Part shown: one piece after another, positions 17 through 17,583 of the stretch
Position numbering within the stretch: position 1 is the first letter of the stretch
How the letters are laid out: the number at the start of each line of letters is the position of its first letter
From: Planoprotostelium fungivorum
Lineage: Eukaryota; Evosea; Variosea; Cavosteliida; Cavosteliaceae
Assembly: GCA_003024175.1 (NCBI GenBank)
Contig: MDYQ01000307.1
Location: forward strand, 1 to 26,344
DNA: 26,344 nt
Reading direction: 5' to 3'
Position numbers and translations under genes: made by a program
Notes under the pieces: model-generated
What the model was told of the DNA's origin: nothing
The model's database searches: none
The model's input: the letters and a program-made list of their open reading frames with translations, nothing else

Positions 17-2638
17 ATGATCTTCCGTCTGGCAGCCAACAGAGGAAATGTCTGCAAGTCGAGAAATTCCTATATATACCCTAGAACTCTTCAGAAATCA
101 GGACGGCAAGTTCGTTCTTTCAGTTCCTTTATTCAAGGAGTGGACGTGATTGTCATAGGGGGAGGTCAGGCTTTTGTATTGTGTCGATCACAGGTGTAAA
201 TGATTTTGCAGGTCATGCAGGTTGCGAGGCGGCAGCAGCTTCAGGTCGAATGGGTGCCAAAACTGTTCTCATTACACAGCGAAAAGTGAGCGTTTTCCAT
301 CAACCTTTGTTGTTGATCGAAAACAGGATACAATAGGTGAAGACATTCATGTTCGCCGGTCTGATGAATAATCGTGACAAAGGTGTGTTGAGCTGCAACC
401 CTTCTATAGGAGGTGTGGGTAAGGGTCACATCGTCAAAGAGATCGATGCTCTAGACGGTTTGATGGGCCGTGTGGCCGACTTAGCAGGTAAACAACAATA
501 TCCCCCCTTCTGTGAAAGATATCTGAAGGAAAAAAGGAATCCACTATCGAGTCTTGAACGTCACCAAAGGCTACGCCGTGCAGGGACCGAGGGCACAGAT
601 GGACAGAGACATCTACAAACAAAGCATGCAGCAGGTGAGACCTCCTCTCTTCTCGCCTGACGCCACCAGGAGCTCGAAAAGACACCCAACCTGAGCATTT
701 TAGAGGGAACCGTAGACGACATCTTAGAAGAGAAGGTGAGATAAAAGAGAGACGATCACTCACATCAAAAAGGAGACGAGCGGAAGTTACGTGAATCGAG
801 TGAAGGGGGTGAGACTGAAGGATGGAAGAGAAGTTCTATGTGGAAGCCTCGTGTTGACCACGGGAACGTTTCTCGGTGGTACCATCCACTGCGGGACGCA
901 CAGCCAACCTGCAGGTCAGTCGATCATTGTGCGATAGAAGGGTACATTTCAGCACGATTGGTGGATACGATAGGAATCGAGAGTTGAGACGCTCGATAGG
1001 TAGAGCTGGAGAGGGAGAAGAGGGAATCCATGCTCTAGCCGAGAACATGAAGAAGAACTTTCCACTGTCTCACATGAGAACGGGTACACCACCACGCCTG
1101 CACGGAAAGAGCATTCGGTACGACGACCTAGAGCCCCAACCCTCCGATGCAGAGCCACATCCACTCAGTTATCTCAACGTGGGCCACCGACCGAGAGAGA
1201 CCGTGACGTGTCACATCACCCACACCACCCAGCAGACACACGACATCGTCCGAGATCACATTCACCTCTCTCCAAAGTTGATCGGGAACGAAGGACATGG
1301 AGTGGGCCCGAGATACTGTCCTTCTCTCGAGAGTAAGGTGAGATGATATCGTAAGTGAAATGCTAAGGGAGATAGGTGAAGAGGTATCCCGACCGAACGC
1401 ATCACATTTTCCTGGAGCCGGAAGGATTGAATACAGATCTCGTCTACCCCAATGGAATCTCCACTTCTCTTCCCGCTGACATCCAGTTGTCCATGGTGAT
1501 GGATCGATGTTACCTCTCAGACTGAGACGAGACAGTTGAGGACGATACCTGGTCTGGAGAACGTGGAGATGGCCAGACCCGGATATTCGGTGGAGTATCT
1601 GTACAACGATCCCACGTCACTGCATCCTACGCTGGAGACCAAGAGGGTCAGTCATGAGTCGACCTCGCGTGAACTGAACGATTCGAAGGTGAAGGGTCTC
1701 TACTTTGCGGGGCAGTTGAACGGCAGCACTGGTTACGAAGAAGCGGCCGGGCAAGGATTATACGCAGGGATAAACGCCGCTCTATCCGTAGGAAAGCGTG
1801 AAGCCTTCTTGATGGATCGATCGCAAGGTGATCAACTCGAATATCACACGAGTAGAAGGAATAAGCTCCTCCCGTTTAACTGCACGATGAAGATTGAGGA
1901 AGAACAGGTTACATCGGAGTGATGGTGGATGATTTAGTCAACAAGGGAACGAAAGAGCCGTATCGGATATTCACTTCGAGATCAGAGTATAGATTATCGT
2001 TGAGACCGGACAATGCAGATCAACGTCTGACGGTGAGAGTGAAGAGAAGGAGAGGGTTGATGATCGTAGGCCATCGGACGCCAGCTCGGCTGCGTATCGA
2101 CAGAGAGAAACGCCATGTTCAACAAGAAGATGGAAGAGCTTTCGAGATATCGCCAGATGTTATCTTCTGTGTCCCTCACGGCGACAGCCTGGTCCAAGCA
2201 CGGAGCATCCATCGATCCACACGGAGTATCCAGGAGCGGACTGGAGGCCATCGGAAAGCATCGAGTGAGCATGGACAAGCTGAGAGAGATCTGGCCAGAA
2301 CAACTGAAAGACATGACGAGAGAGACAGAGAGACAGCTGACCATCGAGGCCTACTACCACGATCATCTCATCCGGTGAGAGCGAGAGACGTTTCAAAGTT
2401 GATGGAAAACAGACAGGAGCGCGAGATCGGCGTGTTTAAGAGAGATCTGAACAGGAGCATCCCAGAAGACTTTGACTTTGGCCGGTTGAAGTCTCTGTCG
2501 AATGAAGAGAGGGAGAAGTTGAACACGATGAAACCGAGGAGCATCGCAGCAGCGACATCGATCTGTGGGATCACACCCAACACTGTACTGGAGCTCATTC
2601 GCTTTTCGTCACCTCGGAGACCCATGAATATAGATTGA
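17..2638 (+). CDS. MTO1: Mitochondrial tRNA uridine-34 carboxymethylaminomethyl modification enzyme (MTO1/GidA/MnmG)
   Basis: FAD enzyme that with a MnmE/GTPBP3-type GTPase modifies wobble U34 of mitochondrial tRNAs. Exons by splice phase and family motifs: 17-164, 212-285, 327-336, 383-487, 537-634, 670-735, 773-914, 1000-1337, 1376-1495, 1536-1646, 1689-1827, 1908-2032, 2070-2374, 2413-2638; the total is 2007 nt, 668 residues, normal for the family. Residues 1-40 are rich in Arg and Ser without acidic residues, as expected of a mitochondrial presequence. The Rossmann motif [10 protein letters not shown] starts near residue 48. SCNPSIGG (near 81) and YCPSLE carry the two conserved cysteines; [22 protein letters not shown] and the C-terminal IPEDFDF and GITP blocks follow in the right order. 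The 10-nt exon supplies DTI plus one base of Gly. The 1647-1688 intron has no stop and is a multiple of three, so it could also be retained. The ATG at 17 is the first in frame, but an upstream exon outside the window cannot be excluded. Confidence 0.93.
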
Positions 2639-8700: not shown

Positions 8701-11340
8701 CTGGTTGTTGGATAATACAGAATTGCTCAGAGACAGCGTCTGAAGATAACCGATGACCGTGATGGCACCTCCTCTCAGAGATGCACTGTTACCAGAGATG
8801 GTGACGTTATCTACGATCAACTGTCGAGAGATGAGACGTCATCGTGAGATCTCAAACTCACGTTCGTGACAGAGCTGAGCAATCCCACCAAGATACCCGT
8901 TCCCTGAGTGGCACTATTGCCCTGAGAGATAGTCAATCAGATGTACTATGATGGAATGAATGAGACACACCTGTAAGACGGCGTTGGTGAGGTATACGTT
9001 GTTGATGACGGTGTTGCTGATGAAGATTCCGTTCGTGTTGGACGGACCCAGTACGACGGAGCTGATGTTGAAGACAGAGATCTCGGCATCCGTGCACACG
9101 ATTCCGCTGCTGGTGGAGGACTGGAAATGCTGGAAGTTGACGTTGCTGACGGTGACCGCGATGGCTGGTTGAGTGGACACCTTCTTGATCTGAAGGCCGC
9201 AAGTGATGGCGCCAGTGTTCACCGCGTTGACGTTAGTGATGGAGATGGTGGATCCAGTGGGAGCGGACACGGTGATGAGACCGTATGAGCTGGAACCCGA
9301 GGTGATGTTCTGGATGTTGAGAGAGTCCATCTGCACGTTGCTGTTGAGGGAGCTGTAGAAGGTGGCACCTCCAGAGTTGGTGTGGGTGATGTTGCTCACG
9401 GTGATCTGCGCAATGGTACCGTACAGTCCCAGTGCATTGCGGTCTGCGTTTGAGCCATCGAAGACCAGGTTACGTGCGGTGACGCTGTTGAGAGTGCTGG
9501 TACTCCACACGTAGATGTGAGAGTATGCGAAGGAGTGGATGTTCCGGAAGACACTGTCGGTGATGGTCAAGTCCGGCCGGTTGACGGCACCCGAGCTCTT
9601 CCACAGAGAGATCATGACACCGGTGGAGTCGGCGAAAAGGTTGTTGCGGAAGGTGACCGTCTGTGCACTATCACTGACGAGAACGGCACCAGCGTTAGCG
9701 TTAACGTTTCTGAAGGTGCTGTCCACCACGGTGACGAGAGTGGTAGCGGAGTCACAGGCTGAAGGGATCAGCTGACCTGACGTGATGAATGGACTCACTG
9801 ATGACTGAGGCGGCGGTGCTGAGAGATGAGACGGGGCTCGTCACGGTGGGGTTGTATTCTGCGGTGTTGAGGATATCGGAGAAAGAGCTGCTGTAGACGT
9901 TGACGATGGCAGCCTGAGTGAAGAGGAAGGGATTGTAAGAAGTAGAGTTCCTGACCCGCACGTTACGCAGAGTGAGGGAGTTACCTCCTGTCAGGTGTCA
10001 GATGTGAGGTGGAGAGAGAGGTGACACAGGATGTGGATGCTCACCGTAGGCGGTGATCTGAGAGTTGTTGTACGAGAGGTCATAGAAGAGAGAGTCTGAG
10101 ATCTCGATGGTGGGATAGTTGGTGGCGTAGATGAAACTGTTGTCCATGCGACGGAAGGTGCTGTTTCGGACGGTGATGGAAGAGCCACCCGAGGTGGCAT
10201 AGAAGAAGGGAGCATTGGAACCACCCTCGAGGCTGACATTCTGCATGTAGACTATGGTGGATTGGACATTCCAGTACATCTGAACCTTGTTGTACTGGAA
10301 GGAAGTGTTCCTCAAGTCCAAGTTAACTGCAGGGTTCATCAGCACAGCCAGGTTCGGGGCAGTGTTGTTGACGAAGGTGCAGTTGGACATGGTGACGGGA
10401 GCGATCGAGAAAGATTGGGTGCTGACGATGTCGTTAAACCCGAAATTATTGTAGAAGTTGCAGTTGGTTATATTCATGGTGTAGGTGACGGAGGCGCTCA
10501 CGCATCGGGCACCTACAACAGAATCAGCATGTTAATCGGATGAGGAGAGATGAAGTACTCACAAATGTTGTTCGTGAAGTTTGAAGAATCGATGGTCAAG
10601 TAGAGGTAACTCTTCCTGTTGATGATACCCTGATTACTCGAGAAAGTGAAAGTGTTGTTGTTGAAAGTCGAACCGGTGATGCTGTATGTAGTTCCTCCAT
10701 TGAACGTGTAAAGAACAGAGATCCTAACGATGTTATCGGTGGAGACGATGTTGGTAGCATTGATGGCTCCGACAGATCCGAACCAGACAAAATGGATGAG
10801 ATTACTGCCGCTGACGACCAAGTTGGTCAAGGTGGACTGCAATGCGGTAGTGTTGAGGCAATCTACACACGTCAATTTATATTTCTGAGTGAGATTTATC
10901 TCACTGAAAGCGGAGATGTTTCTGAAGCTGCAGTCCGACACGGTGAGGTTGGTGCAGTTCAGTTGGAAGAGACCTCCATTGATGACGTTCGGAACGGTGA
11001 AATCCAAGTTAGAGATACTGATATTCTGAGCCCCGCTGATGGATATTGCAACATTGTTGACCGCGGTCCGGGTGTCGGCAGTGAGTATCACGGACTGAAG
11101 ACCATAGCGCGCGTTAAAGATGTAGGATTGCAGCGAAGGGGCACTGATGGGCCCGATCACTTGGAATACTATGTTCGGATCCGAGTTCTTTACAGCCGTG
11201 TTCCATGCTGCATCGACGTTAGTGTTTGACGATGCACTTCTAGACACACCTGTTGGAATATCCGAGTAGATAGTGATATTGTACACATCGGCTAAAGATA
11301 CAGCGACCAAGAAGGTCAAGAGAAGGCAGCGGTTGAGCAT
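5788..11340 (-). CDS. Single-pass receptor kinase: beta-helix-type ectodomain, membrane span, tyrosine-kinase-like domain
   Basis: Predicted cell-surface receptor kinase of 1577 residues. Exons: 11340-10563, 10512-10045, 9987-9799, 9758-8971, 8921-8862, 8820-8383, 8342-8220, 8181-8138, 8072-8030, 7991-7754, 7696-7352, 7311-7095, 7054-6913, 6869-6697, 6658-6535, 6494-6273, 6220-6109, 6060-5978, 5934-5788; all phases agree. A signal peptide (MLNRCLLLTFLVAVSLA) starts at 11340; an in-frame ATG at 11367 would add nine residues. About 1150 residues of Asn/Ser/Thr/Val-rich repeats (pattern like NSTF-NN-A, VSNSTF) suggest a right-handed parallel beta-helix with many N-glycosylation sites. The membrane helix is near 1217-1241, followed by a basic KRSKR stop-transfer. 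The kinase has the GQGAFG loop, AAVK (Lys about 1300), HRDLAARN (Asp about 1395), DFG (about 1413), WMAPE and CW..P..RP, so all catalytic residues are present. HRDLAARN is typical of tyrosine kinases; specificity is not provable here. Confidence 0.88.
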
Positions 11341-11700
11341 AGTCCTGGTCCGGTGAAAATGACGCATGGACGAGGAGCTTCTCAGGACGAATATATCTTA
11401 CCTTTGTTCCGAGGGCTTCCTTCTCGCGATTTATTCTGAGATGTTGACGAGGTGGCGTGGCGGATGTTCTGGGAGAGGGGTTCATTGACCCGCGTGAGTC
11501 AAAAAAAGAATGAGAGAAATAAACCTGCGAGGGCCCAAAGTGCTTTAATCGTAAGTAACCTGCCAGTTGTCACTCCCGAGAGGGATGAAGATATCGATAA
11601 AGGAGATCAGCTTGCGAAAAGATCTGAGAACCCAATGCACTCCGGTAACATGGTTACCTGCGGGAGGTGAGGCTGCAGAAGAACATTCAAAGGAGGAGGA
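11341..11700. promoter_or_regulatory. Shared intergenic region of two divergent cell-surface genes
   Basis: About 360 bp separates the start of the minus-strand receptor kinase from the plus-strand esterase. No coding frame is supported in it. Both promoters must lie here unless they sit inside first exons. I see no clear TATA box. Short frames such as the one near 11452-11670 lack any family motif. Confidence 0.45.
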
Positions 11701-13172
11701 ATGAGCGACACAGGAGGACTTCTATTTTATTCGGTTCTTTGGGGTGAGCGAAATCTTCGCATGCGAGCCGATCACTAAGACCATCAGCTCTCCTAGTCGT
11801 GGTATCTGGGGCGTGTAATAGTCCTCTCCCCGATGGCTATGTTCCTGGTGTCACCACATCCTTCCAACTTGCTGCGGGCTGGGCTCTCTCACAGCCTTCG
11901 AGAAACTGGACTGTGCACATTCCGCAAGACTACGATCCGACCATCCCTACACCCGTAGTCTTCTCCTTTCACGGGGCTACACGAACTGTGGTCGATGAAG
12001 AAGACATCAGCGGTCTATCGGTCAACGGACTGAAGATAAATAATACCTCCTTCATCGCAGTATACCCGCAAGGTGTGGCGGGAACCAAAGGGACCACCGC
12101 CTGGATGGGTGATTCTTTCGGGATAGCATCGTAATATTGACAGCTGATAGGTGCTCCGTACTCTGCTACTGGTGTGGACGACGTTAGTTTCGTTCTACAG
12201 ATGGTACACAGACTGAGGAAGGACCTGTGTGTGGATGCCACTCGGATTTACGCTACTGGAAAGTCCAACGGAGGAGGATTCACTAATTACTTAGCTTGCG
12301 TTCCTGCCACAGGAAACCTTTTCGCTGCTTTCGGCACTGTGAGCGCGGCTATCTACACAGGTCAGTCCTTGCGCTCATCGGCTTATACTGAGTGACGGCA
12401 GACTATAGTTTCGGAAGATACAACAACTGTTCCATCAGTCGTGGGATACCCCTCATGGACTTCCATGGAACGGCCGATGACACCATCCTCTACAACGGAG
12501 GGTATTCCAATAATGCTTTGGTTATGTCGACACCCTATTTCGTCAATGGATGGGCTGCCCGTGATGGCTGCAATTTGAGCGATGTCACTGTGTCCATTGA
12601 CAACGTGGGTAACGTATCTCTGGTGATGACTGATGTTGTTGTAGGGAGTGGTCAATGTCACTACGTGGTCACTCAATTGCAGAGACAACACTTGTGAATT
12701 AATTATTCGATGAATCACTTCTGACGAGACTAAAGCGGTCATCCATTTCAAGATCGGAGGCATGGATCATGCTTGGCCTCGGACGACACTTCCAGCCAAG
12801 TGCAAGGGTGTGGCGGGCAACAACGATTGTGACCCCACCGTCATCAACGCCAACGATTACCTTCTTCCTTTTTTCACTCGCTATAATCTACCCTATGTGC
12901 CTCAAGATACCATAGTAGATTCCAGCACAACCAGTACGACAATCAGTACTTCCTTTACGACCTCCTCCACATCCTCCTCAGCGACGTCATCGTTGATGTC
13001 CCCAACCTCTTCCACTTCTTCCACAACAATAGTAGCAGGTAGTGCAACAATCGTGACAAATTATGCATCAACTTTTACCTCCTCCACACGAGTCATAACC
13101 GTCACATCATCGAGCAGTGCGACGAAACTCCTTCTTAGCGGGATCACAATTTTCATGCTTTTTGCTTTATAA
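11701..13172 (+). CDS. Secreted CE1/LpqC-type esterase (feruloyl or PHB-depolymerase-like), probable GPI anchor
   Basis: Alpha/beta-hydrolase of the family that includes feruloyl esterases, acetyl-xylan esterases and polyhydroxybutyrate depolymerases, 423 residues. Exons 11701-11743, 11788-12108, 12151-12360, 12402-12613, 12645-12693 and 12736-13172 join in phase. Splicing exon 1 to 2 creates a signal peptide ending near VSGACNS. Motifs: VVFSFHGA (oxyanion-hole strand), GKSNGGG (nucleophile Ser about 160), HGTADDT (acid Asp about 217), and GGMDHAWP (His about 290). These occur in the correct order. The 49-nt exon 5 supplies TTWSLNCRD, the usual W-x-x-C block before the His strand. The last 80 residues are a Ser/Thr-rich linker ending in a hydrophobic tail (LLLSGITIFMLFAL), as expected of a GPI-anchored or tail-anchored surface enzyme. 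The substrate is not deducible; an extracellular digestive role fits a phagotroph. Confidence 0.85.
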
Positions 13173-13293: not shown

Positions 13294-15146
13294 ATGATGG
13301 AAAAGTGCCCCACGGAGGAACTCCAATTAGGAATTCAAGTGAGTTGAAACAGTGTCGCAGGTATTCCATTAAACTCTGACAGATTGCAACGATCCTTTCT
13401 TACGATGTTTGGAGAGCTGGGACTGAGTTGAAAGAAATCTATACGCAACATCAAGTAGATGTTCCCCGTGCGCTAGAAACAGATCACGTCCAGAAGATGG
13501 CTCGAATGATTGTAGAGGTGTCGAATCTATACAGACAGCTCGATATGTAATACGTGCAGGGTCTTAAATCACCCAAAGATGTCCTAGAGCCTATTCTTAC
13601 CGTACTGGACTCTTTCATCTCCATTGAGAAGATGTCATTTCTCTCTATGTGTCTGACGGAGGGTGTTTTCAAAGCACTCTCAAATGTTCTGTACGAAGAG
13701 TCAAGCTTCGAGATTGTGATTCAATCCATCACTATTCTCTCCAGAGCTGCAGAACGTGCCCCACAAGGTAAATATATACAGATTGTAAGATTTTCAACTT
13801 CAAACCAGCGAAGATCGAGATCGGTTCGTGGCTTATGGAAGATATCCTTCAATGGATGAAGAAGCAGATGACCATTCTCAACCTTCCACCTCCTGTATTA
13901 CGCACGGCGGCAGAACTCCTCGTTGTGCTATTATGCAAATGCAGGGAGAATCAGAAGATCCTCTTCCATGAGTGGTGCGAGATCGCCGCAGAGAGATTGT
14001 GAGTCACGGCATTCTGTCCATCGTCATACTATTTCAGGAATGACATCTGCTGGATGATCACCAAGGCCAACCATTATCCCTACCAACAACTTCTGATCGA
14101 GGCTCTGTGGCGTGCGACAGTATCTGCACCTGATAGGGAGAAATTCATGGAAGTGGGGTTTGGAGGAGACGTCTGGAAGGTCTTCACAAAGATTGAAGGA
14201 GGAAGACTCCAAGAAGGCATCCAAGACGTCGCTCGGATGATCAACTCAACGAACCCCGACACGAAGTGAATGAGATGAATGATGACACCATTGAACACCG
14301 CAGGATATTCCACTTCAGAGTGGGTGAGCTTCAGCTGATGGAAAGAATGTTCCAAAAGATTACATTCCAAGCCGACAAGGGAGGTCTATCCTTTTGTCTC
14401 GAGAATAGCTTGGTCGTGTTTCAGTATTCCAAATTGAGGATCATGAAGGAGGGTTTGTCAACAGGACACGATCGACATTGATCTTCACTTAGATAAGAAG
14501 ACCACAACCACCCAGTTATACCACACTGGCCCTTTCGATGTGATACTCAAAGACGGAGCAGAAGATCAGAGAACTCTGAAATTGATCTTCAGCGATAAGG
14601 AAAACTACGATGTGAGCGATTCAACCTTACAATTCACTGATATCAACCAGATGTTCATCACAAATGTACTCAAGCGGGCAGACCTCAAACCCGTGTGTAT
14701 CTCGTCGACAGACTGATCTGTGAGAAGATGACGACGTTAGGGCATCATCGGCATGTACCAAATACCCCGCTTATCAACTCGATCCAATTTTGAGCATACG
14801 ATCACAAGACAGGGCCAGACAGAAGATGGGGAGGGGGTGTTCAGAGTGACATGTAATCCATTGCAGAAGAGACTCCCGGAGGCCATCGGTACATCTGAGA
14901 GAAGGGAGGAGAACAAGGATGCCAATTTGTCTGATAGGAGAGGGGAGGTCAAGGACGTCGAAGGAGAAAGAAGCTGCAGTGATAGACCCAGGTGAACGAG
15001 AGAGGTATGGAGGTGCAACTGATGTGGTGAGGGAGGATAAATCACAGGGCACGAAGAGGAAGTTGGATGAGACCAGCGAGGTAGCGAAGAATTACATGGA
15101 TGATTTCATCTTCACAGGTACAGAAGACAGACGTGGGAGAGTTTGA
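13294..15146 (+). CDS. SYCP2-like meiotic chromosome axis protein candidate (ARM-like plus SLD module)
   Basis: A 500-residue protein from exons 13294-13338, 13383-13517, 13560-13767, 13809-13998, 14038-14265, 14304-14415, 14465-14692, 14741-14888 and 14938-15146, all in consistent phase. Residues 1-270 are helical and repeat-like. The stretch LIEALWRATVSAPDREKF, then VWKVFTKIE and VARMINSTN, resembles by eye the end of the ARM-like domain of vertebrate SYCP2 (EALCRMT, KAFKRIK, FLNLVNG). Residues 270-382 alternate strands (FHFRVGELQL, GGLSFCLEN, DIDLHL, LIFSD), fitting the Spt16M-like domain that follows in SYCP2. The last 115 residues are charged and contain a basic KRK patch. SYCP2, yeast Red1 and plant ASY3 recruit HORMA proteins to meiotic axes; this protein is far shorter than vertebrate SYCP2 and I see no long C-terminal coiled coil. 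The family call is from memory of the alignment and needs a profile search. The donor GTGTCG at 13518 is needed to skip an in-frame TAA at 13548. Confidence 0.55.
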
Positions 15147-15151
15147 ATAAA
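15146..15151 (+). terminator. AATAAA overlapping the stop codon of the SYCP2-like gene
   Basis: The TGA stop at 15144-15146 shares its A with AATAAA. It lies where a polyadenylation signal would be, giving a minimal 3' untranslated region. Confidence 0.45.
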
Positions 15152-15617: not shown

Positions 15618-17583
15618 TTATAGGGGTGGTGTGTATGTGACATCGGTATCAATGGTAAGATAATGGTTGTACCAGTTCATCTGAGGGTTAACGAACTGTA
15701 TTCCAGGAGTGGAGGGCAGAATGATTCCCTCTGACATCTTCCCATTGACTTGAGGCATGACAACATCGACGCAAAAGACGTCAAAGATCCAACCCAGATT
15801 GTCCATAGTGAAGTCTCCAATGTTACTTTGAGCTATTGTCCAATTCGATTTCAGGTACGTTAATTTCCCCTTTAATTTCCATCCATCCAGTGCTGCCTGT
15901 CGCAGATTAATGCGCGGTTTGCTGAGATGATGTATGAACACTCACGTCTCCGGAGGTTTGTACGGCACCCTTCAGAGTGAAAGCTAATTTAGGTTGATCT
16001 GAGGAACTATTTCCCATGAGATAGACTTGTAGATCACCTAGGGCTGTGACCGAGGCACCTGGTGGGCGTCAACAGATATTTTAGAGAATAGAAATTACCG
16101 CCCGGTGCGAATAACACTTTTGGTGTGCTCGTTACGTAGCTGACTATACTCAAATTTTGCCCCGGGTAATTTGCAAAGGGTGGTATCAGTGCTATCCATC
16201 ATCAGCTTACTATTGTATACAAGATCTCATACTCGAGAAATAGTCCGTGTTTAATTTGATGATGCTGTTGGATGGCACGTCCAACGGACCAAATTTGATC
16301 TTCATCATGTCTAGCTCGATTATTTCATATCCACGCACAGTGGTGAGCTCACCTGCTTGCAGGAGAGCAAAGGACATGGAGGTAGGTACGTATTCTGACA
16401 GAAACATGGTGATCATTCGGTTGGAGACCGCTCCTGTTGGTAACACAATCTGTGGACAGGCGTCTTCTGGACACTCTTTCGGTGCATCGGAAACATAAGA
16501 TTCCCCTGCAGAATGATATCACATGACCACCATCTCTTGATCTCAACTCACCTGACTCGAAAAGGACGATGTTGTTACCATCGAACTCAGGGTCCTTGAC
16601 CATACCGATGTCGAAGGCAACATTTGGAAGTATCTTCTGAATGACCAGAAAATTCATCAGTACCTTGTTCAGTCCCCCTGTACAGATTAAGCGTTCGAGA
16701 TGAATGAGTAGTACCTTCGATATTGGAATTCACTGCATCTTGTAACTTGCTGGCGATGTCATTTGACAGTGATTTATGGATCAACTTGAGGATAAAATTG
16801 TAGAATCCACTGTGAAGATTAGACAAGGGATGTACAACGATTGACTCACGATCCTTTTCCTGACACATGAATGTCCAATTTAGAGATGTGAACATTAGTG
16901 CTGACCACTTGAGCCTGAAGGTGCTCATCTTTCGCCTTCAGCTGGAGGAAGACTTCGACCTGTGCTGGTCAATCGAATTTGAGGCAAGTGACTCACAGAG
17001 GCCTCCACGTGAATTTGTGCTTCACCCGTTCCGGAGATATGAGGCCATGAATTCCTTCTATAATGCCAGTGACTGGTGGCATCCGTCTTGAAAGATTCAC
17101 TGTGTTGTCGGTCATTTGAATTACCTTGGATCACTCACATCTTCACAGAGAGACCTCGAATACCTCCCATTTGTGTGAGAGTAACTGTGGCTTGACTGAA
17201 AGAAGTGGAAGATAATTGGGCGTTACTCAACCAGTAGTGCAACTTTCCGATGGGTGATCCCACCTGTTTATTCAATTTTGGATGAACTCTCGTCTCACCT
17301 GTCCATCACTATCGGGGATGTGTACGTTCTGAACAATCTGATGCGATGAGCCGGGTTTCAAGTGTGTGGGTATCACCTTGTTAAGGACATCCAGACCAAC
17401 ATTTTTGAAATAGTCTAATGCACCTTGTGAAAAGGCGGTTGCGAATCCAGGCAGATGTGAGGCGGTTTGGCTCAAACTAACCGTTCGGTTAGTTGCGAGT
17501 GGTTGATGAACATCATAGTTCGGCTGATTCAATAAAGAGGTGGAGGTCGCAACCAAGATGAGAAGAAGAGAGCAGATCCTCAT
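15618..17583 (-). CDS. Secreted BPI/LBP/CETP-family lipid-binding protein
   Basis: Two-domain lipid- or lipopolysaccharide-binding protein of 533 residues, close to the family's usual 450-490 plus linkers. Exons: 17583-17299, 17263-17139, 17099-16997, 16959-16850, 16809-16715, 16677-16552, 16505-16233, 16191-16099, 16058-15946 and 15896-15618; all phases agree. The signal peptide is MRICSLLLILVATSTS. The N-terminal barrel begins with GALDYFKNVGLDVLNKVIP, the usual family opening helix, and continues through ISKLDIHVSGKGS and LIHKSLSNDIASKLQ. The C-terminal barrel has MFLSEYVPTSMSFALLQAGEL and the hallmark block SNIGDF followed by VVMPQVNGKMSEGIILP. In animals such proteins bind bacterial lipopolysaccharide or carry lipids; in a phagotroph an antibacterial or lipid-scavenging role is plausible but inferred. 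A two-cysteine patch ECPEDACPQ marks the inter-domain region. Confidence 0.85.

What the first reader, a model, noticed from the sequence alone, without database searches (positions are those of the whole stretch)
13294..15146. Possible SYCP2/Red1/ASY3-type meiotic axis protein in a protist
After hand-splicing nine exons, the protein ends its helical domain with a pattern close to the last ARM-like repeats of vertebrate SYCP2 and is followed by a strand-rich domain where SYCP2 has its Spt16M-like domain. Axis core proteins diverge so fast that homologues outside animals, fungi and plants are hard to find. A compact 500-residue version would help root the family. The C-terminal 115 residues are where a HORMA-binding closure motif might lie.
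Basis: partly seen in the sequence, partly recalled or inferred. Interest (0 to 1): 0.78.

Follow-up and report, generated by a model that had tools for sequence, protein, structure and literature searches.

The report
Possible SYCP2-like axis protein, unproven
A real, intron-rich gene in a compact eukaryotic genome makes a roughly 500-residue protein laid out like the front half of the chromosome-axis protein SYCP2, but the likeness is too weak to prove kinship and the part that normally builds axis filaments was not found.

Summary
The gene is real. A mechanical splicing search finds ATG 13294 to stop 15146, 503 aa; 0 of 1000 shuffles score as high. The SYCP2 reading is plausible but unproven. 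Aligned freely to mouse SYCP2, the protein's best alignment runs in register over the last helical repeats and the SLD (200-367 to 207-386), but its score is ordinary (1698 of 2000 pattern-preserving shuffles reach it); only the long in-register placement is unusual (44 of 2000). Pfam SYCP2 models do not match; the best profile hit is a sub-threshold importin-11-type helical repeat. Two folds of intron-containing stretches were too poor to use. No coiled coil was seen in the tail, so I do not file it as a family member. Tromer et al. [quoted passage not shown] the species here is unconfirmed. Mnd1, Hop2-type and Spo11-type domains occur in the genome; no meiotic HORMAD was detected, by weak searches. 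Status: SYCP2 N-terminal-like candidate without a coiled coil.

The parts
13294..13338 (+). exon 1 (start ATG)
   Evidence: splice model
13383..13517 (+). exon 2, helical repeats
13560..13767 (+). exon 3, helical repeats; encodes most of the sub-threshold importin-11 TPR hit (residues 51-147)
13809..13998 (+). exon 4, helical repeats
   Evidence: helices in a low-confidence model
14038..14265 (+). exon 5, last helical repeats; residues 200-267 line up without a gap with mouse SYCP2 207-274
14304..14452 (+). exon 6, start of the strand-rich, SLD/PH-like domain
   Evidence: an alternative donor at 14416 is possible
14493..14611 (+). exon 7, SLD/PH-like domain
14651..14692 (+). exon 8, putative capping helix of the PH-like domain (inference)
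   Evidence: one search reads through the 39-nt intron 14612-14650 in frame, so this intron may be retained
14741..14991 (+). exon 9, charged tail; its start is where SYCP2 and Red1 carry the HORMAD-binding closure motif
   Evidence: closure-motif position from PMC6349405 passages. instead ends this exon at 14888
15032..15146 (+). last exon (boundary uncertain; one search starts it at 14938), with an NLS-like KRKLDE stretch and stop 15144-15146; AATAAA at 15146-15151
   Evidence: ten alternative last introns. NLS-like is my label, from no call

Best explanation
The gene encodes a compact protein built like the N-terminal half of SYCP2: an armadillo-like helical solenoid, then a PH-fold (Spt16M-like) domain, then a short charged tail. 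Most likely it works as the chromosome-anchoring and HORMAD-recruiting half of a meiotic axis core protein: the solenoid and PH-like domain bind a chromosome-bound partner (cohesin or chromatin), and a peptide just after the PH-like domain may recruit a HORMA protein. Without a coiled coil it could not form axis filaments itself; it would act alone as an adaptor or need a separate coiled-coil partner. Shown: the gene and its splicing statistics, a tail without a recognisable coiled coil, and meiosis-type recombination domains in the same genome. Inferred: the domain order and PH fold (by eye and from low-confidence models), kinship to SYCP2, every binding step and meiotic use.
For: Real spliced gene. 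The best free local alignment to mouse SYCP2 runs in register from the last repeats through the SLD (200-367 to 207-386); alignments that long and in register arise in 44 of 2000 pattern-preserving and 20 of 2000 plain shuffles. End-to-end alignment of the junction (200-285 to 207-300) exceeds pattern-preserving shuffles at 3, 8 and 25 of 1000 with three matrices; the region was chosen after seeing the likeness. The best ungapped 60-residue diagonal has offset +7, in register (28 of 200 shuffles reach its score at some offset). Low-confidence models: late repeats all helical (8 helices), next domain mostly strands. Mnd1, TBPIP/Hop2, two TP6A_N/Spo11-like loci and RAD51/DMC1-type exons occur in the genome. 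Tromer et al. [quoted passage not shown] fungivorum.
Against: No match to Pfam SYCP2_ARLD or SYCP2_SLD, nor with either family in the genome (no control genome rang). The alignment score itself is reached by 1698 of 2000 pattern-preserving and 1386 of 2000 plain shuffles and by 29 of 823 decoy segments. The SLD alone is not above shuffles (90 to 390 of 1000 pattern-preserving, 49 to 178 plain). Mouse SYCP2 finds nothing in the genome at E<=10. No coiled coil. No Cor1/SYCP3 and no meiotic HORMAD with HORMAD1 or ASY1 queries; the one HORMA gene found reads as Mad2, so the partner may be missing. These genome negatives are exon-wise and weak.
Confidence: 0.45

Rival explanations
1. A generic ARM/HEAT-type helical adaptor with a divergent beta domain, unrelated to meiosis; the SYCP2 likeness is the common amphipathic-helix pattern plus chance register.
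For: Best profile hit is Importin-11-like TPR (E 2.8e-4 whole protein, 9.6e-5 for the helical part, both under the curated cut-off); one reversed and four pattern-shuffled copies of the helical part gave no Pfam hit at 0.1, so the helical-repeat signal is probably real. SYCP2 alignment score not above shuffles.
Against: The long in-register SYCP2 alignment (44 of 2000 shuffles) and the matching domain order and sizes; the hit covers only 51-147 and no importin family matched the rest.
Confidence: 0.42
2. An SYCP2-derived protein recruited to a non-meiotic chromosomal role, as kinetoplastids did with KKT16-18.
For: Precedent in PMC8131943 (passages). Here no coiled coil was seen and no HORMAD or Cor1 was found.
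Against: No evidence of kinetochore association; meiosis-type recombination domains are present; the HORMAD searches had no positive control beyond Mad2.
Confidence: 0.08
3. The gene model is wrong or a decayed gene; the protein as spliced does not exist.
For: Tail splicing ambiguous (ten options), intron 14612-14650 may be retained, an alternative donor for intron 6 exists; codon usage support weak (6 of 10 exons).
Against: Spliced-ORF score 1352 against a maximum of 1102 in 1000 shuffles; start, stop and 7 introns recovered mechanically.
Confidence: 0.05

Closest known systems
SYCP2 N-terminal region (mouse, PDB 5IWZ; Pfam SYCP2_ARLD and SYCP2_SLD)
   Same: Helical solenoid then strand-rich domain of similar sizes; in-register alignment over the last repeats and the SLD; tail starts where SYCP2 has its closure motif (PMC6349405, passages).
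   Different: No Pfam match and not among the PDB sequence hits; about 500 aa against 1,500 (PMC5498334); no C-terminal coiled coil seen.
SYCP2-type gene of Planoprotostelium fungivorum noted by Tromer et al. 2021 (PMC8131943, passages)
   Same: Possibly the same gene: one SYCP2-type candidate in a protosteloid amoeba, with no significant sequences in reciprocal searches.
   Different: Its sequence is in supplements I could not read; the paper asked for full ARM-PH-coiled coil order, and no coiled coil was seen here; the species of the window's genome is unconfirmed.
KKT17/KKT18 of kinetoplastids
   Same: ARM-then-PH order (PMC8131943, passages).
   Different: They have a C-terminal coiled coil and work at kinetochores; no sequence comparison was run here.
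Importin-11-like TPR repeats (PF25758)
   Same: Sub-threshold profile hit over residues 51-147.
   Different: Below the curated cut-off; covers only positions 66-172 of a 371-position model.

Membership tests
SYCP2-type axis core (ARM-PH-coiled coil, criteria of Tromer et al. 2021) | N-terminal ARM-like helical solenoid | tested here: inconclusive
   Sub-threshold helical-repeat Pfam hit; helices in a low-confidence model of exons 4-5; no SYCP2_ARLD hit
SYCP2-type axis core (ARM-PH-coiled coil, criteria of Tromer et al. 2021) | PH-fold / Spt16M-like domain after the solenoid | tested here: inconclusive
   No SYCP2_SLD hit; strands in a model of pLDDT 42; Foldseek gave nothing at E<=0.001
SYCP2-type axis core (ARM-PH-coiled coil, criteria of Tromer et al. 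[quoted passage not shown]
   In register (44 of 2000 shuffles) but score not above chance (1698 of 2000); single-sequence comparison only, no family profile of the junction available
SYCP2-type axis core (ARM-PH-coiled coil, criteria of Tromer et al. 2021) | C-terminal coiled coil | tested here: not met
   Best 28-residue heptad window of the 122-residue tail (493-aa model) has 4 of 8 core positions hydrophobic. My own crude score on one of several tail models; the tail-to-tail neighbour leaves little room for more exons
SYCP2-type axis core (ARM-PH-coiled coil, criteria of Tromer et al. 2021) | HORMAD-binding closure motif after the ordered domain | not testable with these tools
   Position known from PMC6349405; no partner HORMAD found here to define the motif
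SYCP2-type axis core (ARM-PH-coiled coil, criteria of Tromer et al. 2021) | Meiotic expression and axis localisation | not testable with these tools
   No transcripts or cells
Importin-11-like TPR repeats (PF25758) | Score over the curated cut-off | tested here: not met
   20.5 bits whole protein, 22.0 bits helical part, cut-off 27

The most novel reading that the evidence does not exclude
A coiled-coil-less, minimal SYCP2-type axis protein kept in a lineage thought to lack the family: an axis adaptor that recruits its partner without building a filament, which would separate the anchoring and filament functions of axis cores.
Probability: 0.2. Interest if true: 0.65.

Novelty: new variant of a known kind. 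Interest (0 to 1): 0.36.

Why it matters
Amoebozoa are the unclear case in the published survey of axis core proteins (PMC8131943). If this genome is an amoebozoan one and the protein is a true SYCP2 relative, the family reached that lineage and lost its filament-forming end there, giving a natural test of what the ARM-PH half does alone. If it is a generic helical adaptor, the published absence stands.

Tried and rejected
Single-sequence tools do not prove kinship: BLASTP's best stretch is a 6-residue match elsewhere (E 8.5), phmmer's is 204-222 to 211-229 (E 0.069 for one target), hhalign's is 200-227 to 207-234 (P 0.11). End-free global alignment of the whole proteins was not above shuffles, and the one printed was a meaningless placement; in the same call the late region reached 31 of 1000 with BLOSUM62 but 171 to 257 of 1000 with BLOSUM45. 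Other weak Pfam hits: Gon7 (E 0.16; 0.024 and 0.059 for two pieces), under the cut-off, given no weight. PDB phmmer gave four weak hits (E 0.21 to 0.98), none to 5IWZ. Codon scores that counted stop codons looked perfect (10 of 10) but fell to 6 of 10 once stops and one of the two near-duplicate training genes were left out; I give the lower figure. An alternative intron 6 (donor 14416) is not separated by codon scores (-1.3 and -1.5 bits); I kept the first because it leaves a strand resembling SYCP2 (by eye). The decoy count is rough: its 823 segments are mostly shorter than the query, include pieces from the window itself (exons of this gene too), and overlapping loci count some segments twice. 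Viral contigs, queried with the first 404 residues: 3 stretches matched a pattern, none confirmed. Meiotic HORMAD: PF02301 found two exon matches at one place that I read, from recalled motifs, as Mad2; HORMAD1 and ASY1 queries gave nothing, which shows little. Species: I could not confirm Planoprotostelium fungivorum; the two papers I asked for are not held. Supplements of PMC8131943 were not open to me.

Full report
Observation. The window is the whole of contig C267 of a 36.86 Mb, 471-contig genome. Splicing by hand from ATG 13294 gives eight GT-AG introns of 38-48 nt and, with one of ten possible last introns, a protein of 493 residues ending at 15146. A dynamic-programming search that knows nothing of SYCP2 (ATG to stop, GT[AGT]...[CT]AG introns of 36-60 nt, fixed penalty per intron) finds the same start and stop, 503 residues and 8 introns, 7 of them the same. 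It reads through intron 14612-14650, which is in frame and open, and puts its tail intron at 14889-14937. Its score of 1352 compares with a mean of 403, sd 144 and maximum 1102 over 1000 dinucleotide shuffles, and with 261 on the opposite strand. So the gene is real, though its tail and one small intron are uncertain. Codon preference adds little: with stop codons left out, the model frame is best in 6 of 10 exons.

What the protein looks like. Residues 1 to about 268 read as amphipathic helices (by eye). The best Pfam hit is a sub-threshold one to importin-11-type helical repeats (residues 51-147, E 2.8e-4 for the whole protein, 9.6e-5 for the helical part); a Gon7 hit (E 0.16, or 0.024 for the second domain alone) is weaker still. 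One reversed and four pattern-preserving shuffled copies of the helical part gave no hit at 0.1, so the helical-repeat character is probably genuine. Residues 268-371 look strand-rich. The tail of 122 residues in the 493-aa model is charged, without a coiled coil by a simple heptad count (best window 4 of 8 core positions hydrophobic). The next gene, on the other strand, carries an LBP/BPI/CETP C-terminal domain in the ORF 15618-15941, which leaves little room for further exons.

Test of kinship with SYCP2. My typed human SYCP2 matched PDB 5IWZ (mouse) at 729 bits, which gave me the mouse letters. The window protein's four weak PDB hits do not include 5IWZ, and it has no SYCP2_ARLD or SYCP2_SLD hit, whole or in pieces; human SYCP2 as positive control hits both. 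Those two models match 9-187 and 278-389 of human SYCP2 and so leave out 188-277. In a free local alignment of the proteins (window residues 1-371) the best placement is 200-367 to mouse 207-386, with no gap from 200 to 267. Its score of 36 is ordinary (1698 of 2000 pattern-preserving and 1386 of 2000 plain shuffles reach it), but a placement that long and in register arises in only 44 of 2000 and 20 of 2000 shuffles. Among 823 stop-to-stop segments from the window and loci, a rough decoy set that includes pieces of this gene, 29 reach the score. End-to-end alignment was tried on five regions with three matrices. Pattern-preserving shuffles reach the observed score in 3, 8 and 25 of 1000 for the junction, 8 to 60 for the late half, 9 to 115 for the whole, 25 to 162 for the helical part, and 90 to 390 for the SLD alone, which is not above chance. 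Mouse SYCP2 finds nothing in the genome at E<=10.

Structure. Foldseek against the PDB gave nothing at E<=0.001 for either. I give these no weight beyond secondary structure.

Genome context. The genome holds Mnd1, a Hop2-type TBPIP domain, two TP6A_N (Spo11/TopoVIA) loci and RAD51/DMC1-type exons, none over the DMC1 cut-off exon by exon. A HORMA hit reads as Mad2 from recalled motifs. HORMAD1 and ASY1 queries, Cor1 and the SYCP2 families found nothing. These searches run exon by exon and no control genome known to hold the query was available for the negatives, so absences are weak. No paralogue of the gene was found: the six matches of the protein at E<=1 all lie in the window locus itself.

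Comparison with what is known. Tromer et al. 2021 (PMC8131943; [quoted passage not shown] They did not detect the family in Amoebozoa, but call that status somewhat unclear because of one SYCP2-type gene in Planoprotostelium fungivorum with no significant sequences in the reciprocal searches. The window may be from that amoeba (short introns, compact genome: my inference), in which case this is probably that gene; I could not confirm it. West et al. 2019 (PMC6349405; passages) place the HORMAD-binding closure motif directly after the ordered N-terminal domain of SYCP2 and Red1, the position where the tail begins here. Feng et al. 2017 (PMC5498334; section 2, part 1 of 2) describe the mouse structure as fourteen ARLD helices followed by a PH-type SLD. 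A full-text search for SYCP2 with Amoebozoa listed 4 papers; I read passages of two (PMC8131943, PMC10907721), of which only the first speaks of an amoebozoan SYCP2-type gene; the other two were seen in the listing only.

Verdict. A real gene with SYCP2-like layout; kinship about even odds; not filed as a member because the coiled coil was looked for and not found.

Noticed in passing
L013 and L014 (G000 C78:11562-12445 and C420:108673-109532): Two RAD51/DMC1-type genes whose DNA is 90% identical over about 1.9 kb, with a further 92% stretch of about 0.46 kb downstream: a recent duplication or strongly diverged haplotypes.
   Followed up: partly
window 876-2638 (+): Two open frames with MnmG/GidA-type hits (PF01134 and PF13932), exons of a tRNA-modifying enzyme gene.
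   Followed up: no
window 8914-11367 (-): Run of long open frames; two of the three tested hit right-handed beta-helix (PF13229), one just over and one under the curated cut-off.
   Followed up: no
window 12762-13172 (+): Protein end with a long Ser/Thr-rich stretch and a hydrophobic C-terminus, like a GPI-anchored surface protein (by eye; no Pfam hit at 0.01), ending about 120 bases upstream of the gene.
   Followed up: no
window 15618-15941 (-): LBP/BPI/CETP C-terminal domain in an ORF tail-to-tail with the gene (PF02886, E 5e-13).
   Followed up: no
L009, L010 (G000 C27 and C441): Two separate TP6A_N (Spo11/topoisomerase VI A) loci; two SPO11 paralogues are reported for Cochliopodium minus and Acanthamoeba in PMC9198077 (passages).
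   Followed up: partly
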